Below, one piece after another: positions 5,508 to 21,030 of a stretch of 64,000 nucleotides of DNA (its first letter is position 1; each line of letters starts with the position of its first letter). The stretch comes from Luteibacter sp. OK325 (GTDB lineage: Bacteria > Pseudomonadota > Gammaproteobacteria > Xanthomonadales > Rhodanobacteraceae): NCBI RefSeq assembly GCF_003050935.1, contig NZ_QAOX01000004.1, forward strand, positions 248,001 to 312,000, given 5' to 3'. The notes beneath the pieces are model-generated. The model was not told the DNA's origin. It saw only the letters and a program-made list of their open reading frames with translations, and did not search any database. Made by a program: the position numbers and the translations under genes.

Positions 5508-6425
5508 ATGCTCGGAAAGTTGAAGGCGATGGCAATCGCCACGGCGGCGTTGTGCGGCTTTGCCTCTATGTCAGCCTCGGCAGAGTTCTTGCGCTCCGGC
5601 CAGTCACTCAGTGTTGGCCAACATCTTGAGAGCCACGATGGCCGCTACGTGGCGATCATGCAGGGCGACGGCAACTTCGTCGTGTATCGGAACGCTGACG
5701 GCGTAGCTATATGGAACAGCGGGACCGGCGGCACGGGCGCTACGTTCGCAGTGATGCAGGGCGATGGAAACTTTGTGATCTACACCGCAGACGGAAGAGC
5801 TGTGTGGTCGACAGGAACAAGCTGGCAAGCGGGTTCTCTTCCTAACGAGTTCACGATCGACGATTACGGCCTGGCAGTCGTCGTCTCATACATTCCCGTA
5901 TGGGTCACGAACACCGTGACACCTGGGGCTCCCCCCGGCGATTCGCTCGTATTCCAGTTTGGTTACAAGTGGCCGCCGGGAGTCGTCTACAACGGTCCGA
6001 ACGGTAACCAATGGACATTCCAGACAGACGGTAATCTTGTGCTTTATCACAACGGCGCTCCTGTCTGGGCAAGCAACGTGACCAACAACAAGAGCGGAAA
6101 GGCTATCTACTCCGTGTGGGAAGGCATCCTGACGACGTGGAATGACTCAGGCGTGGTCTGGAATGGCGCGAGCAACCGGAACTATCCGCCAGGCTTCATT
6201 TGGGATGGCCCTAACGCGTCGCTGCATCTTGGTGGCGATGGTGGTCTATTCGCCATTCAGGCTGACGGCAACGCAACAGCATGGGTCGCTGCACGCAAGT
6301 GGGGTGCATCTACATATGACCCGCCAGCTGCGCCGCCCCCGCCGTCAGGCCCGCACTGCATTGGCGATCCGCACGCCTGTGCAGAAAGCGGCGGCACATA
6401 TCCAGTGATCAACTACCCGTGGTGA
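5508..6425 (+). CDS. Secreted bulb-type (mannose-binding) lectin domain protein
   Basis: A 305-residue protein with signal peptide MLGKLKAMAIATAALCGFAS, cleaved near SASA. Three beta-prism repeats carry the lectin signature Q-x-D-x-N-x-V-x-Y: QGDGNFVVY (about residue 47), QGDGNFVIY (about 83) and QTDGNLVLY (about 168), each followed by a VWxS-type strand, with a fourth degenerate copy (QADGNATAW). This is the B_lectin fold known from monocot mannose-binding lectins and bacterial bacteriocins such as LlpA. The C-terminus is Pro-rich followed by a Cys-containing tail (PHCIGDPHACAESGG) that may form a disulfide loop. It could be an adhesin or a lectin-like bacteriocin; no lysis or immunity gene is visible. 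Confidence 0.82.
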   Translation: MLGKLKAMAIATAALCGFASMSASAEFLRSGQSLSVGQHLESHDGRYVAIMQGDGNFVVYRNADGVAIWNSGTGGTGATFAVMQGDGNFVIYTADGRAVWSTGTSWQAGSLPNEFTIDDYGLAVVVSYIPVWVTNTVTPGAPPGDSLVFQFGYKWPPGVVYNGPNGNQWTFQTDGNLVLYHNGAPVWASNVTNNKSGKAIYSVWEGILTTWNDSGVVWNGASNRNYPPGFIWDGPNASLHLGGDGGLFAIQADGNATAWVAARKWGASTYDPPAAPPPPSGPHCIGDPHACAESGGTYPVINYPW

Positions 6426-6509
6426 TATCTCGTTCGCACAGGTAGACCGGGATACCATCAGATGGACACGAGGGGCTTGACTTAGGTTGGGTCTCTCGCT
6501 TCTGGGTCA

Positions 6510-6894
6510 AATTAATCCCTAGTAGGATAAGCATTTCCGGCGGGGTGAGTGATCTGATTGGACGCTTACCGATCCATGGGAACGCATACGTCTCGAACAG
6601 CCATAGAGCCTTTCCTCGCGTAGCGGCTCTTCGCTTTGCCATTGTCCGCATCCACTCTGCGCGACAGCCTCAAAGCTGTCGTCAGCAGACACTCGAGCGA
6701 ACGCCTTGTCCGGTCGCCTGACGTCTGCGGGATCGCTCCCACTGGAGACAAGGCCCGCCGAACCGATATCGCAAGCGCCAGGTCCTAGACCCGGTCGGCC
6801 GGACCTCGATGCATAGGCCGAGCATGTCCGCTACGCGAAAGACCGTAGGACGCGGCTTGAGCGAGCGAAGTTTCGTGTCAGTCGGTGCCGCCAT
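6510..6894 (-). pseudogene. Remnant of a P4-type integrase gene
   Basis: The amino terminus is intact in one frame from 6894 (TKLRSLKPRPTVFRVADMLG, then TGSRTWRLRYRFGG), matching the DUF4102 arm-binding domain of P4-like integrases. The reading then passes through a second frame and resumes in a third as ALWLFETYAFPWIGKRPIRS, then LTPPEML, the start of the core-binding domain. It breaks off there: the catalytic Arg, His and Tyr region is missing. So there are at least two frameshifts and a large 3' deletion. It lies 173 bases from a tRNA-Leu-like end at 7067, mirroring the live integrase at 19626-20846. Confidence 0.75.
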
Positions 6895-7066
6895 GTGAGT
6901 AACGTCCGAAGCGATCTCGCGATTCGCGGACTTCACTCACACGCTTACTCGCATGCTCGACTGGATGCAGGCGGACATGGGCGGACGGAAATGCGGGGGA
7001 AACCGAGCATTTGCGCCGGCTTACGCGAGTCCAGTGGACTTGTATGGATCACCTTGGAGGTGTCCT

Positions 7067-7088
7067 TGGTGCCGGAGTGGGCATCGAA
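7067..7088 (-). repeat. Degenerate tRNA-Leu 3' end, possible attachment-site relic
   Basis: TGGTGCCGGAGTGGGCATCG then AA closely follows the 3' end of the tRNA-Leu at 21031 (TGGTGCCCGGAGTGGGACTC then GAA), with one base missing and two changed, in the same orientation. Elements that enter a tRNA 3' end leave such a copy at their far end. It would make 7067-21031 one element of about 14 kb. Confidence 0.5.
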
Positions 7089-7098
7089 ATTCTAGCAA

Positions 7099-7359
7099 CT
7101 ATGCGGCCTTTCGGGCCACGCCGAGAGAAGTACCGTCAAATGTACCGTCAGTTTGCCCGAGCTTGGCGGCAATCCAGGCATGCACCTCGACGGACGACCA
7201 AGCGACAGTGCTCCGGCTCTGAGTGAGTGGGTAAGGTTGAGGGAACTGCCCGGTGCCGCACCAGCGATACAGGGTCGCCTTGCTTACGCCGACGAGGGCC
7301 AGCACTGCCGGAAGACGTAGCAAGGTTACGGACGAGGTCGGGAATGTCACGGGGTTCAT
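7099..7359 (-). CDS. AlpA-family transcriptional regulator
   Basis: An 86-residue protein with the AlpA/phage CP4-57 regulator signature: LLRLPAVLALVGVSKATLYR, a winged helix-turn-helix, followed by GQFPQPYPLTQSRSTVAWSS and VEVHAWIAAKL. AlpA proteins switch on integrase or excision genes in P4-like prophages and satellites. AGGA lies before the ATG at 7359. It sits next to the presumed left end of the island, immediately beside the tRNA-like relic. The upstream gap carries a perfect 12-base palindrome that could be its operator. Confidence 0.88.
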   Translation of the reverse strand: MNPVTFPTSSVTLLRLPAVLALVGVSKATLYRWCGTGQFPQPYPLTQSRSTVAWSSVEVHAWIAAKLGQTDGTFDGTSLGVARKAA

Positions 7360-7512
7360 GGTCTGGTCCTGATGGTTGGGGTGCGCCCGTCGGTCATCGA
7401 CGCGTGGCGCGGCCGCAGGCGTGTGGTCAAAGACACCCCCACGGGGGATGCGCGCGACCCTCGAATGTTTGTAGGGGTAACGGAAATTTCCGCCAAAAAT
7501 TTCTAGCTCGCC
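7360..7512 (-). promoter_or_regulatory. Upstream region of the AlpA regulator with palindrome
   Basis: The gap between the phage gene cluster and alpA holds a perfect palindrome CGGAAATTTCCG (7481-7492) and a G/C inverted repeat (CCCCC-A-CGGGGG) near 7436. The first may be an operator; the second could end the phage-gene transcript coming from the right. Confidence 0.4.
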
Positions 7513-8034
7513 TCAGCCCTCAATGACGTACTTGGAAACTGTGAAGGTCGGCCGATCCAGCGAGAACGTCGGCTTAGCGTATTGGCCGGCGTCGGGGATC
7601 TCTGGGATGTAGTCCCTGTACGCGTGCATGGCCGCCGATGTGCCCGATGCTGCCGCGCCCACGACGCCGCTAATCAACTGGCTGTTAATCTCAGCGGATC
7701 GGCTGCGCGCCTGCTGACGATTCTCGATCTGGCCGTTCTCGCGGTTCTTCTCAATGCGAGACACGTCACGCCCGGAATGCATGGCGATGTCGGAGAGAAT
7801 GGCATTCGTGCTGTTGCCGGACAGCCCGGACTCAGCAGACGCGGCCCGTGCGGCGGCGCGCTGTTCACGGGCGACCCTCACACGATCTTCCGTCTGCGCG
7901 CTTGCGGCTTCGTCGGTCTGCTTCTGCTGGAGCTTCAGGGCTTCCTCAGTCGCGTGCTTCTGCTGATTGGCGCCGTATACCGTGGCTGCGGCGGACATAA
8001 CCGCCATGATGATTGGCACCGCGACCGCACACAT
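7513..8034 (-). CDS. T7-type internal virion (core) protein, orphan
   Basis: A 173-residue protein starting with a hydrophobic alanine-rich segment (PIIMAVMSAAATVYGANQQK), then a long coiled helix rich in Gln, Ala and Arg (HATEEALKLQQKQTDEAAS), a GLSGNSTNAIL loop, and a second helical part ending in SGVVGAAASGTSAAM. This order is that of podovirus internal virion protein B (T7 gp14-like), which forms part of the DNA-ejection pore in the outer membrane. No other capsid or tail gene is present. Its ATG overlaps the stop of the upstream gene (TAATG), implying translational coupling. Confidence 0.65.
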   Translation of the reverse strand: MCAVAVPIIMAVMSAAATVYGANQQKHATEEALKLQQKQTDEAASAQTEDRVRVAREQRAAARAASAESGLSGNSTNAILSDIAMHSGRDVSRIEKNRENGQIENRQQARSRSAEINSQLISGVVGAAASGTSAAMHAYRDYIPEIPDAGQYAKPTFSLDRPTFTVSKYVIEG

Positions 8035-8555
8035 TACCGAGGCGCTTCACTGGAAATGGCCTCTACCGCTGATCGACGGGAAGAGGATGGCATTTGCGCC
8101 GAATGCTCGATCCGACGCGTCCGCCGGTCTAACCGGGCTTCCTTTGACGCGGGCTCCGCGCCTGACGCACGCAGGGCGGCCGCGCTGGGCGACCAGTGTT
8201 CCACTCCGTACCACGCGGCGCCTCGCTCGAACCCAAGATTGTCTCGCCGCAGGTTCAGGCTATCGCCGTCGCGTGGGCGCACACGCTTCCCGCGTGGGGC
8301 TTCGGCGACCAAGCGAGCCACCGCGACTTCCCGGTTGAATCCGTCAGGGGTGAAGGCGCTCACTGTCGGGTAACCGTTCCCTCGGCCATCCGCGTTGTAC
8401 TTCCAAGATAAGGAGAAGCCCGCTTTGGTGAGGCGGTCGAGGTCCTCTGCATAAAGAACTACGCTCAGGTCGACGTTGGACAAGGAGATATGGGCGAGTC
8501 GCTGTTCTTCAGGGTCATTAGAAAATCGCGAGGGGTGTTGTGTCTTTGCATTCAT
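8034..8555 (-). CDS. Phage protein with an HNH-like segment
   Basis: A 173-residue protein. The centre reads GRGNGYPTVSAFTPDGFNRE, then VAVARLVAEAPRGKRVRPRD and GDSLNLRRDNL; this V-x-x-L-hydrophobic, R-x-(R/H)-(D/N)-G-x-x-L-(D/N)-x-R-x-x-N-L pattern is that of phage HNH_3-type endonucleases, but the first catalytic His is not obvious, so it may be a DNA-binding relative without activity. The tail is basic and Ser/Arg-rich. ATG at 8555 is preferred to an upstream in-frame start. The gene is coupled to the virion-protein gene by a one-base overlap. Confidence 0.45.
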   Translation of the reverse strand: MNAKTQHPSRFSNDPEEQRLAHISLSNVDLSVVLYAEDLDRLTKAGFSLSWKYNADGRGNGYPTVSAFTPDGFNREVAVARLVAEAPRGKRVRPRDGDSLNLRRDNLGFERGAAWYGVEHWSPSAAALRASGAEPASKEARLDRRTRRIEHSAQMPSSSRRSAVEAISSEAPR

Positions 8556-8739
8556 ACGTTTAGGTCTCTCAGGACAATAGGTGCCCGCCACGTGCCCTGG
8601 GGGTGGCCGTGAACTGAGCATCTGGGGATCGAAGTGCTGGCGCAGGTGAGCGCCGTTCGGGACTGAAGCTGTCTGCTACAGACAACTTGTGTCTACATAG
8701 GGAGGCTGATTCCAGACAGTGGTCGCTTGGGCGCCATCG

Positions 8740-9582
8740 TCAGAAGTCAGTGGCTTCTGACGTCTCGAACTCGAATGCCTGGCGGTCTGGGCTTCCTGCC
8801 TCCATAACGGCCTCAATCTCTAACATCTGCAAGGCACGGCGAACGACTTCCGGGGTCGCCTTGTCCATCAGAGTCGCGAGCTTCTTTGCTAACTTCTCGG
8901 CTTGATGCTGCGTCATCTGTTCCATATCAATCTCGGCCCTCATGTCATGCCACCCGCCCTTACCCTCCCTGACATAACGCCATCGCGGGAATCCGGTGCC
9001 GGGGTCGTAGGCGGTCTCGCTCCACCCCTTCGGATCAACCTTGGGAAGCTGCCGCAGCATTGAGCGCACAGTGTCCTTTCCGATCCCAAAGAGCCCGGCC
9101 ATGGTCCGAAGTGACTTGCCGGACGGCAGCTCCATGGCGCCTCGGTTAGTGATCGCGGCGAGGTATTGCCAAGCGGCGTCTCGGCGCTGCTCGGCGTGCA
9201 TCTCCAGCGCTCGGTCGCCGCAATTGACCAGTTTGGACAGGATTACTGCCCGCGACATCGTCATGGTCTGCACACGGCATGGGATGGTCGAGCGGTGTGC
9301 TCTCCGGTACGCGCTAAGCCTGTGGTGCCCGTCGACGACGAGATGGACGCCGTCAACGTCAGCCACCAGAAGAGCCTCCAGCTCCACGCCCTGCCCTGCT
9401 TCCAGAACTAGGCGCATATGGCCTACGTGCTCGTCGCTTCTTGCCTCGACGCGCCCTTGGTCCCGAAAAGGCACCATGCGCATCTCCCGGGGCTGGAGGG
9501 ATTCGTGGGTCAGCAAGGTTGAGACCGGGAGGGCCTGCGGCTCCGCCGCCCTAAGGCGCGCAAGGAGCCCTTCAGTCTCCAT
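8740..9582 (-). CDS. ParB-like nuclease-domain phage protein
   Basis: A 280-residue protein with an N-terminal ParB/Srx-type domain: the second box reads VADVDGVHLVVDGHHRLSAY, close to the G-(H/E)-(H/R)-R CTP-binding motif of ParB relatives. The middle has a helix-turn-helix-like segment (LRTMAGLFGIGKDTVRSMLR) and the C-terminal part is helical and acidic. Such proteins in temperate phages act in DNA binding, regulation or replication rather than classical partition. It overlaps the upstream small gene by 11 bases. The repeat array at 9941-10525 lies just upstream of the pair and is a candidate binding target. Confidence 0.75.
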   Translation of the reverse strand: METEGLLARLRAAEPQALPVSTLLTHESLQPREMRMVPFRDQGRVEARSDEHVGHMRLVLEAGQGVELEALLVADVDGVHLVVDGHHRLSAYRRAHRSTIPCRVQTMTMSRAVILSKLVNCGDRALEMHAEQRRDAAWQYLAAITNRGAMELPSGKSLRTMAGLFGIGKDTVRSMLRQLPKVDPKGWSETAYDPGTGFPRWRYVREGKGGWHDMRAEIDMEQMTQHQAEKLAKKLATLMDKATPEVVRRALQMLEIEAVMEAGSPDRQAFEFETSEATDF

Positions 9583-9790
9583 CGCAGAGCGCCCTCACCT
9601 CGGGGTGAGTGTGTACGAGGTACTTGAGCACCTCGGCGTTCCCTGTATCGCGCTTCATGCGGCTTTCTAGCGCCCGCTGAAATGATTTCAGGCGGTCAAA
9701 GGTGGGCACGTCGAAGGCGATCGTGCGGATGTTCAATGGCTCGCTCAGGATGATTGCACGTGGGAGGGTGACGAGGTCGGTCTCATTCAT
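9572..9790 (-). CDS. Small phage protein, first gene of the minus-strand cluster
   Basis: A 72-residue soluble protein (MNETDLVTLPRAIILSEPLN...) of unknown function with a basic middle (FDRLKSFQRALESRMKRD). It overlaps the ParB-like gene by 11 bases in another frame, so the two are translationally linked. As the most upstream gene of the cluster it is the one whose promoter would fall in the repeat-bearing region to its right. Confidence 0.5.
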   Translation of the reverse strand: MNETDLVTLPRAIILSEPLNIRTIAFDVPTFDRLKSFQRALESRMKRDTGNAEVLKYLVHTHPEVRALCDGD

Positions 9791-9940
9791 GCGTCTGGGT
9801 CTCAGTGTTTGGGCGTCTGCGGATTGCGGACACGTGAGATCACCGGGGTGGCTGCTGCGCTGCCTCGGTTCTGTGGTTGGAATGGGTTCTAACTTGTCCG
9901 GGGTGGTCTAGCTAACGAGGCGCTTGGAGCATGGTTCGCC

Positions 9941-10525
9941 CTATGCTCCGTGTTTACTCAGTGTCGGGTGCGGGCACGCGGGTTAGTCCTAAGCTGCAAG
10001 GTTTATCCCACCATGCCTTCCGTGGTTTCCTCCTAAGTTCCGACTTTTACCGTCCCGCAGTTCGTTCGCGGCCGAAACGAAGGCGATGACATCTTTCCTT
10101 CTATGCTTGCGGTTTCACTATCGGCGCCCGGTTTTCCCTTTCCTGGTCGGGACTTGAGTCAACGGCAAGCGTCTTGTCACGCGACTGGCGCTGCGGAGCA
10201 CGAGACAGCTCTCTCCTTTCTAAGTTCGCGGTTTTACTCGACTCGAACCATCAGAAAGGTTGCCTATAGGCCGACTTGCGCAGGTACGGCGCAGCACCAT
10301 CGGGTATTCCCTCTTGGGCCACGTGGGTTCGCCACTGGCTGCACCCATTTCTCCTAAGCTCGCGGTTTTACCGGTCAGCGGCATTGGCTCCTTCTATGCT
10401 GTTAGCTTTATCAAGCTCGCAACGCCTCGGCTGCGCAGGTCATCTCTAAGCTGCAACTTTTATCCCACCCCAGCTCCGTACGAGCGTGGTGCGTCAGGCT
10501 TTCCCTCTAGGCTGCGGGTTTTACT
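9941..10525. repeat. Array of at least nine degenerate 18-20-base repeats
   Basis: Units follow CTAAGCT, then 4-6 variable bases, then TTTTACC (variants CTATGCT, CTAAGTT, CTAGGCT and TTTATCC, TTTCAC). First bases: 9941, 9989, 10033, 10101, 10220, 10354, 10394, 10446 and 10507. All run in the same direction and spacing is uneven (40-134 bases). Units at 9989 and 10446 share 11 bases followed later by TTTATCCCACC. No gene with family features overlaps. Candidate roles: binding sites of the ParB-like protein, an origin with iterons, phage promoters read on the minus strand, or a packaging signal. Confidence 0.7.
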
Positions 10526-10565
10526 CGCTCCTGCTAGGGGGAGCAGTGCCAGACCAGTCCTTGCT

Positions 10566-10612
10566 GGTCGCCGGGCATGAGAAGCCCGCCTCGTGGGCGG
10601 CTGCGGTAAGAT
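10566..10612 (+). promoter_or_regulatory. Shared cargo element, copy 1
   Basis: GGTCG at 10566 and GCCTCG at 10588 lie 22 bases apart with GGGCATGAG between, then TAAGAT at 10607. In this copy GCCCGCC-TCGT-GGGCGGC makes a perfect 7-base-pair hairpin. Matching copies lie at 12749 and 15331, each about 50-60 bases before a start codon. Confidence 0.6.
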
Positions 10613-10640
10613 CAGATATAGCTGAGGGAGCAGTGAACCG

Positions 10641-11534
10641 ATGAGTGACGTGCCGAAGCACCTTTACAAATACCGAGCCTTCGGTGTTAACACACTCAGC
10701 GTCCTGGTTAGCGGCGAGGTCTATTACCCCGCCCCTGCTGACTTCAACGATCCGCTCGATTGCCAACCCGCTATAAGAATGGACTTAGACCGCGAACGCG
10801 CCGAGCGGCTATTCCACGTGCTGTGTGCGGAAGTCGGTGTTGTGACGTCGCCCGACGATATGGCGAAGCTCTACAACGCACCGAGGTCGTTGATCGAGAC
10901 GTTCAGCGGCCAAGATGCTGAGTACCTATACCTACAACGTCTGGCCACAAAGATTCTGAAACTGGCGGTTGCGCGAAACGAGACTCGCGGCGTGTTTGCT
11001 CTCGCGGAGCGCTACGACTGCCCACTGATGTGGAGTCACTACGGCGACAACCATAAGGGAATCTGCCTCGAATACGACACGTCGCAACACGGCCTCATTG
11101 ACTTGAAGCAGGTCGACTATGCGTTGACCCGCGTCATCGATGCGAGCACGCTCTATGAGTGGAAAGTGCAGGGACTTCGCAGCGCCGGAAAATTAGTGGA
11201 CCGTCATTTTTTCGCCGCCAAGGCGCCGGACTGGGACTACGAGCGCGAGTGGCGTGTCGTACATCCACTCATTGGTGCCGGAGTGGCGCCGTTTGCGCTT
11301 TCAGGCATCTACTTTGGACTGCGCTGTCCCGACCCCGTCAAGACCACAATTACGAAGGTGTTTGCTGGCCGCCCGGATATTCGGTTCAGCTCGTTGTTCA
11401 CGACAGATAGTGGGTTCGGACTCTATCCGATGATTTGGAGTAACGAGGTCCGCGAGCCGCGCGAGGCGTTCGGCGTCACAACTTGGTTTCTGCAACCCGG
11501 TGCGCAATCCAGCGTGTTCATGGATGATGAGTAG
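10641..11534 (+). CDS. DUF2971 protein, probable defence-associated cargo
   Basis: A 297-residue soluble protein with the DUF2971 layout: LYKYRAFGVNTLSVLVSGEV at the start, YYPAPADFNDPLDCQ near residue 30, then CPLMWSHYGDNHKGICLEYD near 130 and DWDYEREWRVV near 200. DUF2971 proteins are common in defence islands and toxin-linked loci, but their biochemical activity is not established. ATG at 10641 follows GGGAG. It is the first plus-strand cargo gene and is preceded by the shared upstream element. The superinfection-exclusion-like gene follows 45 bases later, possibly in the same transcript. Confidence 0.8.
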   Translation: MSDVPKHLYKYRAFGVNTLSVLVSGEVYYPAPADFNDPLDCQPAIRMDLDRERAERLFHVLCAEVGVVTSPDDMAKLYNAPRSLIETFSGQDAEYLYLQRLATKILKLAVARNETRGVFALAERYDCPLMWSHYGDNHKGICLEYDTSQHGLIDLKQVDYALTRVIDASTLYEWKVQGLRSAGKLVDRHFFAAKAPDWDYEREWRVVHPLIGAGVAPFALSGIYFGLRCPDPVKTTITKVFAGRPDIRFSSLFTTDSGFGLYPMIWSNEVREPREAFGVTTWFLQPGAQSSVFMDDE

Positions 11535-11579
11535 TCGACGCGATTCCGCCGAGATTTGTAGAGCCCAAAGGAGCAAAAT

Positions 11580-11972
11580 ATGAAGAAAGTGATGACGCTG
11601 ATTGCCATTCCGTTCATCGGAGTGGCTATTGCCGGAGCCATGCCTGCATGGGCCGATGGACTGACAGGTCCTCAGGGCAATGCCGCTAGATCGGCGGAAC
11701 AGTACCTAAGCATATCGGGGTTCTCACGGGTCGGACTTATCAAGCAACTTTCATCGGCCGCTGGCGATGGCTATGACGTCGCCGACGCAACCGTGGCGGT
11801 GGACAGCCTGAATATTGACTGGAACATGGAGGCGGTGAAGTCTGCGAAGCAGTACCTCAGCATCTCGGGTTTCTCGTGCAAGGGACTAACTAACCAACTT
11901 TCGGCCAGTGCCGGTGACAGTTACACCCCGAGCCAAGCTGCCTACGGTGCAAAACAGGCGGGTGCTTGCTAA
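11580..11972 (+). CDS. Ltp-family superinfection-exclusion-like protein
   Basis: A 130-residue exported protein: signal peptide MKKVMTLIAIPFIGVAIAGA, cleaved near AWA, then two tandem helical repeats. Repeat 1 is AARSAEQYLSISGFSRVGLI, then KQLSSAAGDGYDVADATVAV; repeat 2 is AVKSAKQYLSISGFSCKGLT, then NQLSASAGDSYTPSQAAYGA. This is the Ltp fold (PF07553), whose best known member, from Streptococcus phage TP-J34, blocks injection of DNA by other phages. Here the signal lacks a lipobox cysteine, so the protein is probably periplasmic rather than lipid-anchored. AAAGGAG precedes the ATG. In an island it fits a role in keeping competing phages out. Confidence 0.82.
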   Translation: MKKVMTLIAIPFIGVAIAGAMPAWADGLTGPQGNAARSAEQYLSISGFSRVGLIKQLSSAAGDGYDVADATVAVDSLNIDWNMEAVKSAKQYLSISGFSCKGLTNQLSASAGDSYTPSQAAYGAKQAGAC

Positions 11973-12109
11973 AGGGCGAGAAACGAGGGTCGAACCTCGA
12001 CGGGACCAGCGACGTGGGCGGCGGACAGCGGTTGCCACGCCGTTGAGGGCATGGTTTGATCCGTCCGCCACGCCACTGTCAGCGTGGACGATTCGTCAAG
12101 GGGAATGGA

Positions 12110-12634
12110 ATGGCTTTGGTAAATTGCGCTGAGTGCGACGCAGAGATCAGCGATAAGGCTCTAGCCTGCCCGGCGTGCGGGGCTCCTCAGAAGAAAAGCC
12201 GCAGCGTTCTGCCCGTCCTGCTTTCCCTCATTGGCCTAGCGGTTCTTGCATTCGTCATCCTCGCCGCAGTCGGCTCCCGCCAAGCATCCACGGCGGCGGC
12301 GCGAACGTCGCCCAGCGCCAGTATTCTTGCAGACTCCGAGGTGCAGCTTGGAAACGGGGCGTATGGTTGCGCGTTTTCGGCAACCGTAGAGTCGGCAAAG
12401 AGGCATTACGAGCTTGGCGAGTATTCGGCGTGGGCATCCGAGTCCGGCGGCCCTCTCTGCTTTAATCACGCGCCCTCAGAATTAAAATGGACGGTCCTTC
12501 AGATTCGGGGAGATTTCGCGCAGGTAGGATTCGCGTCGCTTGCCCAATATGACGCGGCCCACAAGTCGGTGCCCGACATGGCAACCGAAAAGTACTGGGT
12601 ACCGCTGTCCTTCCTATTACCGGCTAGTCCTTAG
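12110..12634 (+). CDS. Zinc-ribbon membrane-anchored protein
   Basis: A 174-residue protein. The first 25 residues form a zinc ribbon (NCAECDAEISDKALACPACG, two C-x-x-C pairs), followed by a basic linker and one membrane helix (VLPVLLSLIGLAVLAFVILA). The rest is an extracytoplasmic domain with two Cys (GCAF and PLCFN) and a tail with WVPLSFLLP. ATG at 12110 is chosen for the strong AAGGGGA ribosome site; upstream starts lack one. The topology resembles zinc-ribbon sensors such as YjfP- or DUF-type accessory proteins, but I do not recognise the outer domain. It follows the Ltp-like gene by 137 bases. Confidence 0.65.
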   Translation: MALVNCAECDAEISDKALACPACGAPQKKSRSVLPVLLSLIGLAVLAFVILAAVGSRQASTAAARTSPSASILADSEVQLGNGAYGCAFSATVESAKRHYELGEYSAWASESGGPLCFNHAPSELKWTVLQIRGDFAQVGFASLAQYDAAHKSVPDMATEKYWVPLSFLLPASP

Positions 12635-12748
12635 TCGGCTGGGCGCTACGGCTCTAGGCCAACTTTTGCCACTTGAACTCGAAGACGGCGATGTCGGAGC
12701 GGAGCGGGTTTCTGCATACACAGTTGCGAGCCATGCGGGTTCCCTGCC

Positions 12749-12795
12749 GGTCGTTGGGCATGAGCAAGCCGCCTCGCGCGTGGCCGTGGTAGATT
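12749..12795 (+). promoter_or_regulatory. Shared cargo element, copy 2
   Basis: GGTCG at 12749, GCCTCG at 12771 and TAGATT at 12790 repeat the spacing of copy 1 exactly. Upstream, CCATGCGGGTTCC (12731-12743) and an earlier CTCGA...GTCGG block (12678-12697) are shared with copy 3 but not with copy 1. The start codon at 12826 lies 50 bases after GCCTCG. Confidence 0.6.
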
Positions 12796-12825
12796 CGCGG
12801 CGCATAGGAGCGCCAGGGGACAGCT

Positions 12826-13341
12826 GTGGGCCTTACGTTCGATCAGAAAGTGCAGCTTTGGAACACCATAGGCACTTGGTTCGCCGGGGTAGCGGGTGCC
12901 GGGGCAATCATCACATCGCTGTATCTCGCGACGCGCGTGAGCCGCGTGAGTCTCAGGACGCATGTAACGCTGGGCGCCCTCGTGAGCCAAGGGCGTCCGC
13001 TGGAGGACTTGGTGGAGATCAGCGTCACGAACTTGGGCGAACGGACGGTGACAATTACCGGAGTCGGCTGGCGAGTCGGCAAAGGTGCCGGCGCGCGTAA
13101 CGCTGTGCAGAACTTCTCGGCACACATGAGTGACAGCCTTCCCATAGAGCTTCCGCATGGGAAGCAAGCGGGTTACCGCATCTCAATGCAGGAGGCTACC
13201 GATTGGCCTGCGTATTTCCGCACCGAGTTCATCCGGGATGCGAAACTTTCCACCTTGCGTGCGGTTGTAAGCACATCGGTCGGACAAGAGTTCGAGATCA
13301 AGCCGAGACAAAACGTTCTAGACTTCATCGCAAAGGGATGA
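12826..13341 (+). CDS. Single-pass membrane protein of unknown function
   Basis: A 171-residue protein starting with GTG (ribosome site AGGGGA). One membrane helix (WFAGVAGAGAIITSLYLAT, residues about 18-36) is followed by a cytoplasmic or periplasmic domain rich in beta strands: LVEISVTNLGERTVTITGVG, then LPIELPHGKQAGYRISM and LRAVVSTSVGQEFEI. The pattern is that of small proteins seen in phage and defence islands that carry one anchor plus an Ig-like sheet domain. It has its own copy of the shared upstream element and is followed 104 bases later by the ATPase, so the pair may act together. No known name. Confidence 0.55.
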   Translation: MGLTFDQKVQLWNTIGTWFAGVAGAGAIITSLYLATRVSRVSLRTHVTLGALVSQGRPLEDLVEISVTNLGERTVTITGVGWRVGKGAGARNAVQNFSAHMSDSLPIELPHGKQAGYRISMQEATDWPAYFRTEFIRDAKLSTLRAVVSTSVGQEFEIKPRQNVLDFIAKG

Positions 13342-13445
13342 AGCTTGCTGCTGCCTCCTCACGACAGGGGGCAGGAACTAACGACTGCTTGTGGTCGGAA
13401 ATCGATCTGTGGTCTGCTAACCCACATCTATCATGGAGTGACGCC

Positions 13446-14738
13446 GTGCCTATTAACCCGGAACTAGGGTTCACCGCCGCCGAGATTCGTGATCCGGAGC
13501 GTTTCGTAGGCCGAACCGGGCTGCTAAAAGACTGCATTAACGCCCTCAACGCGCCGTCAGGCCTCATCGCCGTGTACGGCAAGCGCGGTGTCGGTAAGTC
13601 GTCACTTCTTAGGCAGCTGCAACAAATGGCGCTGGGCGATTACTCGCTTGTCAAAAAGGCGCAGCTCGCGCACCTAATTCCTGAGAAGCCTCGGACGTAC
13701 TTAACCGTCTTCTATTCTTGCGACTCACTGATTACCGACAGCAATGGGCTCCTTGCCCGCCTCTGTAATGATCAAAACGATGAAGACGGCCTGCTTCGCC
13801 TTGTGCCAGACGACGGGAAGGAAATCGTCGAGTTCACCCGCTCTAAAGAGGTTTCGGCAGGCGCGGATCTCAAAGTGGTTAATTGGGGAGCAAAGGGCAT
13901 AGAAGCAACTAAGTATGCCCGCGTCGTTCCAAACGACACTGTGCAGACTTTTCGGAACTTCGTGGAGGCCGTGATCTCTCACCAAGTGCGTAAGCGCATG
14001 AAACGCGATGCGCTGCTCATTATTCTCGACGAGTTCGATGTCATCCAGAACAAGGAAGGAATGGGTTCGTTGTTCAAGTCGCTCACATCCGCGGACTTGA
14101 AGTTCGCGATTTGCGGTGTCGGGCGTGATCTGAGCGATCTGGTCAACGACCATCATTCGGTTGAGCGCCTCATCGAGCAGGGCGTCCTCCCGGTGAAGCC
14201 GATGCCGAAGCCCGAGTCCGAAGCGATCATCGGCAAAGCCGTTGAACTGTTCCGAGGTGCGGTCACGTTCGAGCCGGGCATTGCTGGAAAAATTGCCGAT
14301 CTCTGTCAGGGCTATCCGTACTTCGTTCAATTGATCGGCAAGCAATGCATCAATGTGCTTAACGAGATGGGCAGCAACATCGTTGACGAGGAGGTCTACA
14401 GTCGCGTCCTAAACGAGCTGAAGACAGGGAAGGCGTTTCCGACGTTAGAGGCCGCATATCAGCGAGCGATAGGAGAGTCTAAAGACCGGCAGCTCTTGCT
14501 TCACCTCCTAGCCGACCAAGACACCAGCCACGTCTCCGCAGATGAAGTGGGACGGATCGTTCTTCGCACGGCCCGAAAGGATGCGGAAGACTTGGATGTG
14601 CAGTACATCGACCAGCTTATGCCCAGGCTCATTGAACAAAAGTATGGGCCGGTTCTGGAGCGGGTCGCTGAGAAGCAGGGCGTGTATGAGTTTGTGAACC
14701 CGGTCTTCCGGCAGTACATCTGCCTCCGAGAGTTTTAA
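13446..14738 (+). CDS. P-loop ATPase, AAA/STAND-like, defence-type
   Basis: A 430-residue protein. GTG at 13446 is taken as the start because GGAG lies 8 bases upstream and the fold begins there (AEIRDPERFVGRTGLLKDCI, a typical lead-in). Walker A is YGKRGVGKSSLLRQL near residues 44-58; Walker B is LLIILDEFDVI near 195-205; an arginine-containing sensor-like GVGRDLSDLV follows. The C-terminal 150 residues are helical and end in winged-helix style (VLERVAEKQGVYEFVNPVFR). This resembles archaeal-type MoxR/STAND ATPases used as nucleotide-driven switches in abortive defence. No nuclease domain is fused, so an effector would have to be a neighbour. The frame upstream of 13446 overlaps the previous gene and is not used. 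Confidence 0.75.
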   Translation: MPINPELGFTAAEIRDPERFVGRTGLLKDCINALNAPSGLIAVYGKRGVGKSSLLRQLQQMALGDYSLVKKAQLAHLIPEKPRTYLTVFYSCDSLITDSNGLLARLCNDQNDEDGLLRLVPDDGKEIVEFTRSKEVSAGADLKVVNWGAKGIEATKYARVVPNDTVQTFRNFVEAVISHQVRKRMKRDALLIILDEFDVIQNKEGMGSLFKSLTSADLKFAICGVGRDLSDLVNDHHSVERLIEQGVLPVKPMPKPESEAIIGKAVELFRGAVTFEPGIAGKIADLCQGYPYFVQLIGKQCINVLNEMGSNIVDEEVYSRVLNELKTGKAFPTLEAAYQRAIGESKDRQLLLHLLADQDTSHVSADEVGRIVLRTARKDAEDLDVQYIDQLMPRLIEQKYGPVLERVAEKQGVYEFVNPVFRQYICLREF

Positions 14739-14881
14739 CCAACATTTCGACGTCCGCGCCCCGCCCGCTGGCGGGAAGCGTCACCGTGCTCCTCGAAGCC
14801 CCTGGCCGCCTCCAGCAGGCCATCGAGTCCAAGTGGTCGCCAAACACTGACCGGACCGTGCGGAGCTGGCGCCACTGGGCG

Positions 14882-15085
14882 CTACAGGACCTTGACGAGA
14901 ACCGCAGCAATTGTGCCAAGCGCACCGACCGCGATAATGCCGATGGCGACCAGCGGGTAATAGCGCAGCTCCGCATTGATCTTCGAGGTCTCCGCGCCAA
15001 GCTTCATGGTCTCGGCCATGGTCTTGGTGATATTCGCGTGGATCAATTCGAGGTCGGCGGTGTTCATGGGTGTGGCTTCGGCCAA
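14882..15085 (-). CDS. Tiny membrane protein
   Basis: A 67-residue protein with a coiled or helical N-terminal half (NTADLELIHANITKTMAETM) and a single C-terminal membrane helix (LVAIGIIAVGALGTIAAVLV). Either TTG at 15085, preceded by TAGGAG, or ATG at 15067 could be the start. It runs against the neighbouring cargo genes. Small proteins of this shape occur in toxin-antitoxin and phage loci, but nothing here is diagnostic. Confidence 0.5.
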   Translation of the reverse strand: MAEATPMNTADLELIHANITKTMAETMKLGAETSKINAELRYYPLVAIGIIAVGALGTIAAVLVKVL

Positions 15086-15330
15086 GTGGACGCTCCTAGC
15101 CTATCAGGGTGTGCGGATGAGTTCCCAGCGGTGCCCCCCGGGTTCTCAAGGGGCACGGCTTGACACTCAGGCGACTCTAGCCCCGCGAGCCGTGGAAGGA
15201 ATGCTGAATCTTGACGCGGTAGGGCGGCGCCTACCTACCCGTTTATGCGGTTCGGACTCGATGGCGGCGACGTCGGGAAGGAACCGGTTCCACGTCGAGA
15301 CATTCTTCCGGGCCACGCGGGTTCCTGGTT

Positions 15331-15380
15331 GGTCGTTTGGTATGAAACAACTGCCTCGTGGTCGACCCTGATGATAGAGT
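15331..15380 (+). promoter_or_regulatory. Shared cargo element, copy 3
   Basis: GGTCG at 15331 and GCCTCG at 15353 keep the 22-base spacing; CCACGCGGGTTCC at 15313-15325 lies 18 bases before GGTCG, as in copy 2. An A/T-rich TAGAGT follows at 15375. The DUF4145 gene starts 60 bases after GCCTCG. The rest of the gap 15086-15417 shows no gene. Confidence 0.55.
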
Positions 15381-15417
15381 CTTACATAGGCGACAGAAGA
15401 CCAGGAGCGCGCCACCC

Positions 15418-16104
15418 ATGAACGGTTTGCCAACCATGCTGGTTCACTGCAACAAGTGCGGTGGGGAAACGAGACACTCGGTACTTCATAAGTATGCGAG
15501 TGAGTTCGAAGACCCCGAGACTCGACTGCGGGAGGCGCACAATTACAAGATGCTTGCCTGCCGTGGCTGTGAATCTGTGAGCCTAAAGCACAGCGTCAGG
15601 TATCAAGAAGAGTTCGACGGGGAAACTCGGTACTACCCGCCGCACGTCTACAGAAAGCCCCCAGCGTGGCTGTGGCGGGTGAGGGACGGCCATGGAAAAG
15701 ACGGTAAATACGTAAATACGCTCCTCGTCCAGATATACGAGGCGCTCGCCGTCGATGCGTTCGCTGTCGCGGCTATGGGCGTACGCGCCCTACTTGAGTA
15801 TCTGATGGTCTCCAAAGTCGGTGATCAGGGTTCATTTCAGAAGAACTTGAAGGCGTTTCACGAAGAAGGTCACGTTACCGCCCGGGAGAGGGAGCGCCTT
15901 GAAAAGACGCTCGATGTTGGAAGCGCAGCGATTCATCGGGCGTATCTCCCAGAGCACGCAGACGCAATGGTCTTGCTGGACATTGCAGAGCACGCCATAG
16001 TGTCGATGTACCTCCACGATGAGGCCGTCAACAACGTCGCGCAAAAGGTACCTGTCCGACAGGCTCGTAAGAAGCCGGAGGGCGCTCAGGACCAAAAGGC
16101 GTAG
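15418..16104 (+). CDS. DUF4145-domain protein with zinc-ribbon lead
   Basis: A 228-residue soluble protein. The start has a C-x-x-C zinc-ribbon pair (HCNKCGGETRHSVLHK) and a second one at CRGCESVSL. The C-terminal half is the DUF4145 helical bundle: YVNTLLVQIYEALAVDAFAV, then AAMGVRALLEYLM, and AAIHRAYLPEHADAMVLLDI, then AEHAIVSMYL. DUF4145 occurs alone or fused to type I restriction and other defence enzymes and is thought to be nucleic-acid linked; activity unknown. ATG at 15418 follows AGGAG. It has its own copy of the shared upstream element. Confidence 0.78.
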   Translation: MNGLPTMLVHCNKCGGETRHSVLHKYASEFEDPETRLREAHNYKMLACRGCESVSLKHSVRYQEEFDGETRYYPPHVYRKPPAWLWRVRDGHGKDGKYVNTLLVQIYEALAVDAFAVAAMGVRALLEYLMVSKVGDQGSFQKNLKAFHEEGHVTARERERLEKTLDVGSAAIHRAYLPEHADAMVLLDIAEHAIVSMYLHDEAVNNVAQKVPVRQARKKPEGAQDQKA

Positions 16105-16244
16105 ATCGTCCCGCCTTACTAGGCGAAAGAGACGTCCACCTTTCCTGCGACCGCAAACGCCATGGACGAGCTCGTCTACAAACGAAACGCGCCCGGTCAC
16201 TTTACTGATTGCCCGAGACCGTCACCGACTCGCGAGTGAGCTTG

Positions 16245-17054
16245 ATGACCGACGAAACGACTGCAACCCGTGAACCCTTGCGAGCAGCCAGTGGGTTGCT
16301 CGAAACACTTCCCAGACTCGCAAGCTCGGTCATCGGCATTACTGCGGTCGCGTACGTCATCGGGTGGCGACTCTCCAGTGTCTACTACACGGGGTTGGGC
16401 GCGCCCTGGGTCGCGCACCTGCTTACGGTCCAGCAGATGTCGGCCTCTGCAAGCTGGTTTGTCTTCGTAATCGTTTGCGCTACCGTGTTTGCCACCGTTG
16501 GTGTCATCTCTGGACAGGCCACCGCGCGCGGATTGGTGAGGTGGTCGACCATCCTGTTTGTCATCGGCTCCGTGCTTTACTCGATGTTTAATGACACATT
16601 CGGTTTTGTTAACTGGCAGCACGGCGCCCTCTTTGAATCGTTTGGCGGGATACTGTTCGCGATCTCGATTGGTCTTTCGTTGGGTGAATTGGTAGCGCTG
16701 GCAGCTGACGGGAGATCGTTGGTCACTTATCTCCCGCATTGGGTCGGACCATTACTAGTCGCGGCGCTCTTTCAAGGTCCCCAGGCGTTCGCTGGTGGTG
16801 TCGCAAAGGTGGATGGCAGCGTGCCGTCGCACTTACCGGCCGTCACGCTTGTGACGCCGGATGGACACCAGTGGATGATGATCGGTCCCGCCGGGGATCA
16901 GTTGCTTCTGATTTCGCCGAGCAATGACGTACGCGCCCGCGTTTTCCGGCTAGTGGCTCCGTCCATGATTGCGGCAATCGGAACTCCTCCCCGTAGTGAC
17001 GCCGAAGCGTCAAACCCTAATAGCGTCAAAGGGCACCCTGAGCCCCATCCGTAG
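16245..17054 (+). CDS. Four-helix membrane protein, island cargo
   Basis: A 269-residue protein with a hydrophilic N-terminus, about five hydrophobic segments (SVIGITAVAYVIGWRL, WFVFVIVCATVFATVGVISG, STILFVIGSVLYSMF, GGILFAISIGLSLGELVAL, VGPLLVAALFQGP) and a polar C-terminal domain of about 90 residues containing DGHQWMMIGPAGDQLLLISP. ATG at 16245 is preferred over a TTG start further up. I do not recognise the family; membrane proteins of this kind often serve as effectors in phage-defence cassettes, which is only a guess here. It lies between the DUF4145 gene and the inner recombinase. Confidence 0.5.
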   Translation: MTDETTATREPLRAASGLLETLPRLASSVIGITAVAYVIGWRLSSVYYTGLGAPWVAHLLTVQQMSASASWFVFVIVCATVFATVGVISGQATARGLVRWSTILFVIGSVLYSMFNDTFGFVNWQHGALFESFGGILFAISIGLSLGELVALAADGRSLVTYLPHWVGPLLVAALFQGPQAFAGGVAKVDGSVPSHLPAVTLVTPDGHQWMMIGPAGDQLLLISPSNDVRARVFRLVAPSMIAAIGTPPRSDAEASNPNSVKGHPEPHP

Positions 17055-17202
17055 GGACTGCGACGGGCCGAATACACTTCTCAGAGAGGTCGCCATTGAG
17101 CCATCGACGCCTCTGGATATTGCTGCGTGTCCGCACGTCAGGCGGCCAGCGGTACTTCGGTGCGGTCTAGGCGGCGGCTATATCCGAGTTGGCCCGACTC
17201 AA

Positions 17203-18414
17203 CTATGGAAGCAGGATCGCATCTTGGCGAAGGCGGGTGACACTCTGCGCCGCGCTTACTAGCTGCTTTGTCTGTAGGTGGGTGTAGATGTCGGTAGTAG
17301 CGATAGATGTGTGTCCAAGCCACTCCTTCACTATCTTCAGATCCGCCCCGCTCTCCAATAGGCGGCTCGCGCATGTGTGGCGCAGCGAATGGATCACGCA
17401 GTCACGATGGCCGATGCCCGCCGCAGCCCGCGCACGCCTCCAGATATCTTGCGCTCGGCGAGCGTCGAGATCCTTGAAAGGGCCGACGGCAATGCCTCTG
17501 CACGCATCAAGAGCGGTGGCACAGGTATCGGTCATTGGCACGCTGCGCTGGCGACCAGTCTTCAGGTCCTCGTGGCGGAACAGCTCGATCATTCCGGCTC
17601 TCTCGCCGCGCGAGAAGTCCAGCTCGGTCCATAGGAGCCCTAGGGCTTCGCTCAAGCGCATGCCGGACTCGACCAGCACTACGAACAATAAATGGTACCG
17701 ATACGCGTCCGGCTTTCGTGGGTGACCCCATTTAGGCTCTAGACGGATATTGTCCAGATTGAGCACGGCCTCGAAGATGGCCTGCTCGTCCGAGAAATCC
17801 ATAAAGTAGGCCCTTCCCGTCCGCTTTCTGACTCCCTTCACCTTCGGGAACACCTTAGGCGCGTCGGGCCAGTGATCATCGAGGGCTACGTTGAACATGC
17901 GGCGCAGGCAGGCCAAGTGATTATTCACCGTGGCTCCCGAGAGCGTCTGCCCAGGTCGGTTGATGCCTGGCAGCGGCTTCGATACGAGTCGACTGGTGAG
18001 CTTTTGAACCGAGTGGTAGTCGATTGCGGAAAGTTTGGTATCCGCGCCAAGTATTTCTTCTATCACGCGGCAATTCCTCGCGTACTCCGAATGAGCCTTC
18101 AGATACCGCCAGGTCGTGGGCGACCTTAGACAGCGGTCGAAGGCTTCTTTCAGCGTGAGCCCGCCGTCGGCATGTAGTTCTGCCGCACACCGGTTTGAGC
18201 CGCTTCCCCTGATTAACGCGACGAGGTCGGCTTGGGCCAGCCGAGGGTTCTTGTGAAGCGCTGCGACGATGAGACGCTCCTTGGCGAGCGCATCGACCTC
18301 ATCGTTGCTGCCTGTAGAGACAGCAACGCGGCGACCGTCCACTTGGACGCGAATCATGTAGTACCGTCGATCTCTTCCCGACGGGAGTTGCGAGCCTTTA
18401 AGTTTGAGCGGCAT
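17203..18414 (-). CDS. Tyrosine recombinase (site-specific integrase)
   Basis: A 403-residue protein with an N-terminal SAM-like core-binding domain and a C-terminal catalytic domain: ESGMRLSEALGLLWTELDFS carries the first Arg, HSLRHTCASRLLESG carries His-x-x-Arg, HTSIATTDIYTHL carries the second His and the Tyr nucleophile. All catalytic residues are in place. GGGAGG precedes the ATG. It belongs to a different group from the P4-type integrase at 19626. Its presence inside the island shows that at least one further mobile unit was inserted, or that the cargo module brought its own recombinase. Confidence 0.9.
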   Translation of the reverse strand: MPLKLKGSQLPSGRDRRYYMIRVQVDGRRVAVSTGSNDEVDALAKERLIVAALHKNPRLAQADLVALIRGSGSNRCAAELHADGGLTLKEAFDRCLRSPTTWRYLKAHSEYARNCRVIEEILGADTKLSAIDYHSVQKLTSRLVSKPLPGINRPGQTLSGATVNNHLACLRRMFNVALDDHWPDAPKVFPKVKGVRKRTGRAYFMDFSDEQAIFEAVLNLDNIRLEPKWGHPRKPDAYRYHLLFVVLVESGMRLSEALGLLWTELDFSRGERAGMIELFRHEDLKTGRQRSVPMTDTCATALDACRGIAVGPFKDLDARRAQDIWRRARAAAGIGHRDCVIHSLRHTCASRLLESGADLKIVKEWLGHTSIATTDIYTHLQTKQLVSAAQSVTRLRQDAILLP

Positions 18415-18525
18415 GACTGGCCTCCCAGGTTCGGCAGCCGCATTATTTCCTCGCTCTAGTGCTGTTACCAGTGCTTAATTGACTGCCTGCGAAGCCCGTT
18501 CAGCGCGCGGTGATGTGCAAGTTGT

Positions 18526-18940
18526 CAACGCTTGACGACTCGCAATCGAGTAGCGTCGCTCAGGCCGAGAATCGGTGGTCGTATGCTCCGGCCCTGGTTG
18601 TAGTCGCGCAGCCAGTCTTCTATCTCGGTCCGAGAATGCAGCAAGTTCGGAAACCAGTGCACGTTAAGGCATTCATCGCGCAGACGCCTGTTGAACGATT
18701 CAAGTAGCTATTTTGATTTGGTTTGCCCGGCTCGACTAGGCGCAGCTGCACACCACGCGTATGCGCCCAGGCAGCCATGGCCTTGCCACAGAACTCCTTG
18801 CCGTTGTCGCCCTGGATCACCCTCGGGAGTCCGTGGGTGCTCGCCAGCCAGCCCATGACGCGCGTCACACCGACACCTGTTATGGCTTGCTCGACCTCGA
18901 CGAAGGCAACCTCGTGGGTAGCGTCGTTGATGCCGGACAA
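18526..18940 (-). pseudogene. IS3-family transposase fragment
   Basis: The stretch codes part of the DDE catalytic domain of an IS3-family OrfB: GLPRVIQGDNGKEFCGKAMA, then WAHTRGVQLRLVEPGKPNQN. After NSYL the frame shifts; the other frame continues with ESFNRRLRDECLNVHWFPNL and a WLRDYN motif. The start of OrfB, OrfA and the terminal inverted repeats are not present, so the copy is dead. It sits between two integrase genes. Confidence 0.8.
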
Positions 18941-19017
18941 CCTATGCCGACTGAGACGGCTATGTCTTCAGAACACGGGCAGCCGTAAATTCGAGATAAC
19001 GAGGGCAGGACGTCAAA

Positions 19018-19470
19018 CTATCCGATCCATTCTTCAAATCGAACGGAGTCGATTTCCCCTCTCGCAAGCGCTCCCAAGCCCGACGAGAGATCGCCGAGCT
19101 GCCCATACGTCGACAAGAACCGTCCACGCACCATCGCCCTGGCACCTTGGAAGCCGGCACCGATTTCTTCTTGCACGAGGCTGACTTCGACTATAACTTT
19201 GTCACCTATACCGGCGCTTTTCGCACGAATCCCAATATGTTCGTCAGCTACCCTTGTATGATCGATGCGATCTAAATAGCCAAGCGAGATAACGAGCGTC
19301 TCGTCAATATCGATCGGCATCTTCGAGAAAACCTTGCTTTCCCCTTCAAGGATTCTCGGATTGAAATATGCGAGGGACTCGCCAGCAAATGCCCCTGACC
19401 TTAGCGTAACGAAAAGTCGCGGACTGTCCTCGATATCGTCATTGACGGTTGCTTCAAAGTAATTAGACAC
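19018..19470 (-). CDS. Hypothetical beta-rich protein
   Basis: A 150-residue soluble protein with alternating polar and hydrophobic residues typical of beta sheet (SPRLFVTLRSGAFAGESLAY, DKVIVEVSLVQEEIGAGF). GTG at 19470 is preferred over TTG at 19473 because GGAGG then stands five bases upstream. Base composition is richer in A and T than the core genes, consistent with recent arrival. It is downstream of the P4-type integrase on the same strand, a place where accessory cargo is often found. No family recognised. Confidence 0.5.
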   Translation of the reverse strand: MSNYFEATVNDDIEDSPRLFVTLRSGAFAGESLAYFNPRILEGESKVFSKMPIDIDETLVISLGYLDRIDHTRVADEHIGIRAKSAGIGDKVIVEVSLVQEEIGAGFQGARAMVRGRFLSTYGQLGDLSSGLGALARGEIDSVRFEEWIG

Positions 19471-19625
19471 CAATGCCTCCGTTCGTGATTTTTAGCTCGA
19501 CGTTGAGCCCAGCACCATTTGAAATGCGACCAATCGCGTGAGATCGCCGAGTGGGTAGCCAAATGTTGAACTCTGATAAAGGGGAAAACTACAGATGAGG
19601 ACAGAAACGAGCGCCTTCCGCCGCA

Positions 19626-20846: not shown

Positions 20847-20960
20847 GGCGGTATCTCAGGATCGGCGAGCGCGCATCTTACATATATACCGTCAAAAATG
20901 CCGCCACATACCGCCAGCTTCCCTGACCTTCCGTGAGACACCCTGCGACCACGCAACCAC

Positions 20961-20985
20961 AAAAAAGCCCGCTGTTATGCGGGCT
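20961..20985 (-). terminator. Terminator of the tRNA transcript
   Basis: On the minus strand AGCCCGC-ATAACA-GCGGGCT is followed by a run of T. It stands downstream of tRNA-Leu. It also blocks transcription into the integrase. Confidence 0.85.
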
Positions 20986-21030
20986 GGATGGCTCATGCGA
21001 GCCTCAATGAGATTGACCGAGATCGGCTAA

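What the first reader, a model, noticed from the sequence alone, without database searches (positions are those of the whole stretch)
10566..15380. A conserved element in front of three island cargo genes
GGTCG and GCCTCG lie exactly 22 bases apart at 10566, 12749 and 15331, with GGGCATGAG-like sequence between them. Copies 1 and 2 then have an A/T-rich hexamer exactly 14 bases further on. The start codon follows 48, 50 and 60 bases after GCCTCG (DUF2971, single-pass membrane protein, DUF4145). Copies 2 and 3 share more sequence upstream. This looks like a shared promoter or activator site, so the cargo genes may form a regulon. No clear -35 box is seen.
Basis: partly seen in the sequence, partly recalled or inferred. 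Interest (0 to 1): 0.85.

Follow-up and report, generated by a model that had tools for sequence, protein, structure and literature searches.

The report
Prophage cargo-slot scars, not a promoter
The repeated DNA in front of three island genes is best read as the leftover start of a small bacterial-virus gene and the stop signal before it, marking a place where related viruses carry swappable genes, rather than a shared switch that controls the three genes together.

Summary
In detail: three copies at the stated places, far above chance. The explanation differs. On the minus strand the element is an intrinsic-terminator hairpin, a Shine-Dalgarno sequence and the first codons of a small (~62 aa) gene of a temperate phage group of Luteibacter and Dyella. 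Eight intact copies of that gene show pN below pS in 28 of 28 pairs. In the window it survives as scars: leader only (copy 1), a broken start (copies 2, 3). Ten more junctions were found outside the window. Unrelated genes start divergently beside the hairpin, 44-61 nt away in 9 of 10 measured junctions: Mrr_cat nuclease, HNH, DUF4145 (three times), DUF2971 (PADLOC PDC-S31) and others. One relative (L047) has the element with no divergent cargo and no -10. So the element is the fixed edge of a prophage cargo slot; the cargo probably has its own promoters just outside it (5 of 10 have an extended -10 at p<0.05). A regulon is not supported, and the suggested ParB-like binder was found in none of seven element-bearing genomes or records. 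Whether three prophages decayed here or one junction was duplicated is unresolved.

The parts
10558..10608 (-). Copy 1: hairpin (about 10584-10601), T-rich tract and Shine-Dalgarno leader of the phage small gene; the coding part is gone
   Evidence: 84% identical to L047 over 50 nt, E 2e-8; hairpin -9.7 kcal/mol
12651..12791 (-). Copy 2: decayed hairpin (about 12768-12784), leader, and broken start of the small gene (start codon about 12734)
   Evidence: 80.7% identical to L047 over 140 nt, E 3e-31; protein match to residues 1-46 with two TAG inside, at 12624-12761; hairpin -6.6
15262..15373 (-). Copy 3: decayed hairpin, leader, and diverged start of the small gene (GTG about 15316); the left end is approximate
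   Evidence: 79.7% identical to L047 over 69 nt (15305-15373), E 1e-10; hairpin -5.0
10607..10612 (+). Candidate -10 (TAAGAT) of the DUF2971 gene, not preceded by TG
   Evidence: p 0.073
12787..12795 (+). Candidate extended -10 (TGGTAGATT) of the membrane-protein gene
   Evidence: 0 of 1000 shuffles as good; p 0.004
15372..15380 (+). Candidate extended -10 (TGATAGAGT) of the DUF4145 gene
   Evidence: p 0.011
10641..11534 (+). Cargo: DUF2971 protein, candidate defence family PDC-S31
   Evidence: Pfam 4e-9; PADLOC 2.5e-42
11580..11972 (+). Cargo: Lipoprotein_Ltp family
   Evidence: Pfam 5.3e-25
12110..12634 (+). Cargo: zinc-ribbon membrane protein
   Evidence: Zn_Ribbon_1 8.8e-5, just below Pfam's cut-off
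12826..13341 (+).
13338..14738 (+). Cargo: nSTAND1-like NTPase
   Evidence: Pfam 5.9e-10
15418..16104 (+). Cargo: DUF4145 protein
   Evidence: Pfam 3e-13; homologs at the same slot in G202 (44%) and L195 (38%)
14885..15085 (-). Phage backbone gene, open, on the expected side of copy 2
   Evidence: 84% DNA identity over 235 nt to L047 4993-5226
13347..13383 (-). Possible second phage terminator region
   Evidence: 81% over 37 nt to L047 6805-6841, weak, E 0.019
17203..18414 (-). Integrase of this phage group
   Evidence: 68% identical over 399 aa to the Dyella silvatica prophage integrase, 44-46% to those of L047-L049; PHROG integrase
7513..8034 (-). gp14-like internal virion protein gene of this phage group
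   Evidence: 61-69% identical to genes of the L047, L048, L049 records and of G028; Pfam T7_gp14 7e-18

Best explanation
The element is the 5' edge of a small phage gene read leftwards, with the intrinsic terminator directly before it (shown by comparison). In a group of temperate phages of Luteibacter and Dyella with T7-like virion genes, this edge is the fixed side of a cargo slot near the integrase: unrelated accessory genes, some defence-like, sit divergently right behind the terminator and differ from phage to phage (shown by comparison). In the window such prophage DNA has decayed: the small gene is broken in all three places while the cargo genes stay open (shown); that each scar is a separate prophage is inferred. 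The cargo is most likely transcribed on its own, as phage morons are, from extended -10 promoters just outside the hairpin (inferred). Where intact, the hairpin would hinder transcription running antisense through the cargo from passing into the small gene and integrase (inferred).
For: Hairpin, T run, RBS and start codon in order in intact relatives. L047 matches all three copies (E 3e-31, 1e-10, 2e-8). Small gene: 21 homologs, pN<pS in 28 of 28 pairs. Divergent unrelated genes 44-61 nt from the hairpin in 9 of 10 measured junctions. DUF4145 at the slot in three places. Element without divergent cargo in L047. Other genes of the same phages in the window: 14885-15085, gp14-like, integrase.
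Against: Small gene found in only 4 of 233 family genomes by profile, so the sample is small. Copy 1 rests on 50 nt. In L196, G028 and G040 the nearest divergent ORF is 96-150 nt away and may not be cargo (by eye). The -10 scan reached p<0.05 in only 5 of 10, with a matrix recalled from memory. gp14-like was not found in G123, G202 or G040. Termination was not measured.
Confidence: 0.8

Rival explanations
1. Shared promoter or activator site: a regulator binds the 28-nt block upstream of a promoter without a -35 box, so that the three cargo genes form a regulon.
For: The block lies at a near-constant distance from the start codons, and -10-like boxes follow it in copies 2 and 3.
Against: The block continues into a minus-strand gene and occurs in L047 without divergent cargo or -10. 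The ParB-like protein is absent from 7 of 7 element-bearing genomes or records. The copies have drifted (65-76% identity to copy 1).
Confidence: 0.06
2. One prophage junction was duplicated inside this island, by unequal recombination, and different cargo was added later, instead of three prophages arriving one after another.
For: The tree puts the three copies on one side of a branch, without good support (40/82), and a backbone gene was found beside copy 2 only.
Against: Ungapped over 51 nt every copy is nearer to L047 (42, 44, 39) than to any sister (at most 39, 39, 33). The flanks beyond the junction are not repeated.
Confidence: 0.35
3. The block is a recombination or integration site (attC-like or transposon end) at which cargo cassettes are inserted.
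For: Start codon 44-61 nt from the hairpin in 9 of 10 measured junctions with unrelated cargo.
Against: The repeat search of 6900-20900 shows three copies and none behind the last cargo. A short promoter and leader beside a terminator gives the same spacing. The hairpin is an ordinary terminator shape.
Confidence: 0.1

Closest known systems
Antiviral hotspots of P2-like phages and P4-like satellites and of other prophages near the integrase (PMC9122126; passages seen)
   Same: Small variable locus beside conserved phage genes, close to the integrase, with known or candidate defence genes
   Different: Another phage group (Luteibacter/Dyella, T7-like virion genes); one edge is a terminator plus small gene; in the window only scars of that edge remain
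Phage morons (PMC6814406, PMC12829572; passages seen)
   Same: Accessory genes in prophages, thought to be expressed from their own promoters
   Different: Here the promoters are predicted only, and the phage around the cargo has decayed
Intrinsic (rho-independent) terminators
   Same: G+C-rich hairpin followed by TTTTT in intact relatives; the half GGCGGCTTTTTCATGC is common (120 stretches before the scan hit its limit)
   Different: It stands right before the ribosome-binding site of the next gene; two of the three window copies have lost the stem

Membership tests
Prophage cargo/antiviral hotspot | Fixed position beside conserved phage genes | tested here: met
   Hairpin + small gene at one edge in 10 junctions outside the window; an integrase gene or remnant downstream of it in 9 of 10 (not in G202, where an IS-like piece follows)
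Prophage cargo/antiviral hotspot | Content varies between related phages | tested here: met
   HNH, Mrr_cat, DUF4145, unassigned proteins, or none (L047)
Prophage cargo/antiviral hotspot | Content gives defence against phages | tested here: inconclusive
   By homology only: DUF2971 = PDC-S31 (2.5e-42), Mrr_cat, HNH; the other window cargo has no convincing PADLOC match
Phage moron | Own promoter, active in the lysogen | tested here: inconclusive
   Extended -10 at p<0.05 in 5 of 10; no transcript data
Intrinsic terminator | Stable G+C-rich hairpin followed by a T run | tested here: met
   Six relatives -11.2 to -14.2 kcal/mol with T runs; window copies -9.7, -6.6, -5.0, so not met for copies 2 and 3
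Intrinsic terminator | Stops transcription | not testable with these tools
   Needs a reporter assay
Regulon operator | Conserved in front of the regulated genes and not otherwise explained | tested here: not met
   Explained by the divergent gene; present in L047 without divergent cargo
Regulon operator | Candidate regulator (ParB-like) occurs with the element | tested here: not met
   0 of 7 element-bearing genomes or records; the query finds 11 of 233 family genomes, the own included; none of 10 other loci examined has the element
Regulon operator | AlpA binds or occurs with the element | not tested
   No search was made with AlpA in the relatives
Integron-like cassette site | Site at both ends of each cassette | tested here: not met
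   No copy behind the last cargo in 6900-20900

The most novel reading that the evidence does not exclude
The island is a layered fossil of three successive prophages of one group: each arrived with its own cargo at the same terminator-bounded slot, each decayed, and each left open cargo genes with a 50-140 nt scar. The scar would then be a readable mark of how a defence island grows by prophage arrival, decay and cargo retention, and the terminator edge the anchor at which cargo is exchanged.
Probability: 0.4. Interest if true: 0.55.

Novelty: new member of a known kind. Interest (0 to 1): 0.36.

Why it matters
It replaces a tempting but unsupported regulon with a concrete, searchable object: a cargo slot in a Luteibacter/Dyella phage group whose fixed edge can be used to collect candidate defence genes. 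It is also a case in which broken phage genes stand next to cargo genes that are still open, which bears on how defence islands form.

Tried and rejected
Element with up to 1 mismatch in 197 family genomes: 11 had a hit, the own included; the other sites, printed, show no flanking similarity by eye and were taken as chance. L019, one of two viral hits, likewise.

L020 copy as a DNA query in 197 family genomes: 15 had a hit, the own included (16 places). Besides the own two, G123 and G040 proved to be the small-gene junction; the other 12 places, printed, look like ordinary terminators or unrelated matches by eye and were dropped.

Element region in GenBank phages (copy 1) and, with the L020 copy, in plasmids, phages and E. 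coli: no match.

Copies of the tRNA-Leu end inside the island: none in the window beyond the gene itself, apart from a 13-nt chance match, so prophage ends could not be placed.

Tree of 13 junctions: no starred branch. The gapped identities were set aside, since shuffled sequence also gave 0.76 under that scheme; the ungapped table is used.

Profile search with 19 small proteins missed the own relics, which a single sequence had found.

Rfam on 5000-21500: only three tRNAs. DUF2971: 6 of 233 genomes besides the own, 28-36% identical; the upstream regions printed show no element by eye. One scan of genome contigs gave one locus, the Dyella silvatica one.

Literature. 'DUF2971' with 'phage defense': 0 papers. 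'Luteibacter' with 'prophage': 14 papers, 12 listed, listing seen only. I make no claim that the slot is absent from print.
Full report
Observation. GGTCG-N17-GCCTCG occurs exactly three times in the window, at 10566, 12749 and 15331, all on +; 100 shuffles gave 0.17 on average and never three. The copies form a 51-nt repeat family. The own genome holds no other copy within one mismatch.

First clue. A scan of viral contigs with the pattern gave two hits. L019 has no similar flanks. L020 (IMGVR_UViG_3300048854_000042; the same record is L038 and L047) is similar well beyond the pattern. There the element reads on the minus strand as a hairpin (GCCGCCC..GAGGCGGC), TTTTT, CATGCCCAACGACCAGC, AAGGA, ACCCGC, ATG: terminator, Shine-Dalgarno sequence and start codon. 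The gene encodes a ~62-aa protein with 21 homologs in the protein collection; those with a named organism are from Luteibacter and Dyella. Eight intact copies have pN below pS in 28 of 28 pairs.

Window copies as scars. L047 against the window by BLASTN: copy 2 140 nt at 80.7% (E 3e-31), copy 3 69 nt at 79.7% (E 1e-10), copy 1 50 nt at 84% (E 2e-8). Copy 2 matches residues 1-46 of the small protein with two TAG inside. Copy 3 keeps leader and start and then drifts; copy 1 ends just after AAGGA (by eye). Hairpins of the window copies fold at -9.7, -6.6 and -5.0 kcal/mol, against -11.2 to -14.2 in six relatives; G202, itself decayed, gives -7.9.

The slot. Ten further junctions were read: L047, L048, L049, L194, L195, L196 (virus records) and G123, G202, G028, G040 (genomes). 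A profile scan of the whole family found 4 of 233 genomes (G123, G202, G028, G040). Downstream of the small gene an integrase gene follows within about 2 kb in L046/G028, L047, L048, L049, L194, L195 (there split over two frames) and L196, and an integrase remnant in G123 and G040; in G202 an IS-like piece stands there. On the other side of the hairpin, reading away from it: HNH in G123, an unassigned 159-aa protein in L048 and a 282-aa one in L049, Mrr_cat in L194 and DUF4145 in L195, a degenerate DUF4145 and a 93-aa ORF in G202, an 87-aa ORF and a transglutaminase-like gene in L196. L047 has phage genes of the small gene's own direction there and no divergent gene. In G028 and G040 the nearest divergent ORF is about 96 and 150 nt away (by eye) and may not be cargo. 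In the ten junctions measured by script (three in the window, seven outside) the start codon lies 44-61 nt from the 6-mer in nine, and 103 nt away in L196 (for the window copies that script's 6-mer is shifted by one base, so it prints 49, 51 and 61; the start codons of L049 and L196 are my choice). DUF4145 at the slot in three places (window copy 3; G202, 44%, with two TGA inside; L195, 38%) is the strongest single sign that the window arrangement is this slot.

More phage remains. The open gene at 14885-15085 (minus) is 84% identical over 235 nt to L047 and lies on the expected side of copy 2; a terminator-like stretch at 13347-13383 resembles L047 only weakly (81% of 37 nt, E 0.019). The gp14-like gene at 7513-8034 is 61-69% identical to genes in the L047, L048 and L049 records and in G028 (there on another contig than the small gene), and was not found in G123, G202 or G040. 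The integrase at 17203-18414 is 68% identical to that of the Dyella silvatica prophage. In two relatives (L048, L046) tRNA-Leu lies 60-100 nt beyond the integrase. G123 has a contig of the same length (4,485,268) as the Luteibacter sp. 9135 record behind P0002, so the window's genus is probably Luteibacter; this is inference.

Promoters. A scan with a -10 matrix recalled from memory found extended -10-like boxes at p<0.05 in 5 of 10 cargo genes: copy 2 (0 of 1000 shuffles), copy 3 (0.011), L195 (0.014), G123 (0.019), L194 (0.038). Copy 1 is borderline (0.073); L049 0.13, L048 0.24, G202 0.52 and L196 0.89 are not significant. L047, L046 and G040 have none (0.70, 0.55, 0.90). The five boxes begin +19 to +26 from the start of the 6-mer, so they are not in a fixed register with the block. 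I read them as cargo promoters outside the conserved block.

Regulon idea. The ParB-like protein has no match in seven element-bearing genomes or records, three of which are virus records that may be fragments. The same query finds 11 of 233 family genomes, the own included, so the search works. Of the 11 other ParB-like loci I examined 10 (L207 was left out); none has the element within the stretch held (best 4-5 mismatches of 17). AlpA was not tested.

Origin of three copies. Ungapped over 51 nt every copy is nearest to L047 (42, 44, 39 identities) and less near to its sisters (at most 39, 39, 33). The tree of 13 junctions has no starred branch; it groups the three with support 40/82, which is neither shown nor rejected. 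Three arrivals and one duplicated junction both remain open; I lean slightly to the first.

Known kinds. Hotspots of antiviral genes between conserved phage genes, some next to the integrase, are described in PMC9122126 (passages); morons in PMC6814406 and PMC12829572 (passages). The slot is a new member of that kind. DUF2971 matches PADLOC's candidate family PDC-S31 (2.5e-42); the NTPase has only a weak mad8 match (0.00096), and DUF4145 and the other window cargo tested have none.

Verdict. A real and well-spotted element; not shown to be a promoter or to define a regulon; best read as scars of a prophage cargo slot.

Noticed in passing
9941-10527 (+): Nine same-direction copies of a short repeat (CTAnGCTnnnnGTTTTA; 40-134 nt apart) between the ParB-like gene and copy 1. 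The ParB-like family has 238 homologs. Upstream of one ortholog (L208) there are 7 similar copies; L200 and L204 have 2 each; L198 shows another repeat (TTTAGTCGTCA, by eye). Possibly a binding-site array of that protein.
   Followed up: partly
19585-19614: A 30-nt block beside the second integrase is conserved, with 2-6 mismatches, in L047, L048, L049, L194 and L196, about 3-6 kb upstream of their small gene; not found in the other 6 relative loci searched.
   Followed up: partly
6409-6936 (-): Two ORFs whose translations look like pieces of a decayed integrase next to the AlpA gene (read; no search made).
   Followed up: no
19626-20846 and 21031-21117 (-): A second integrase (P4-like by memory) starts next to tRNA-Leu(taa); with the integrase at 17203-18414 the island looks composite.
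   Followed up: partly
11580-11972 (+): Lipoprotein_Ltp-family protein among the cargo; from memory, this family includes phage superinfection-exclusion lipoproteins.
   Followed up: no
L047 6860-6915; L048 and L049 just before the small gene: The terminator stands directly before the ribosome-binding site of the small gene, leaving no room for a promoter of its own; expression would need read-through or antitermination (inference).
   Followed up: no
18620-18940 (-): ORF that looks like an IS3-type transposase fragment (read, name recalled; no search made).
   Followed up: no
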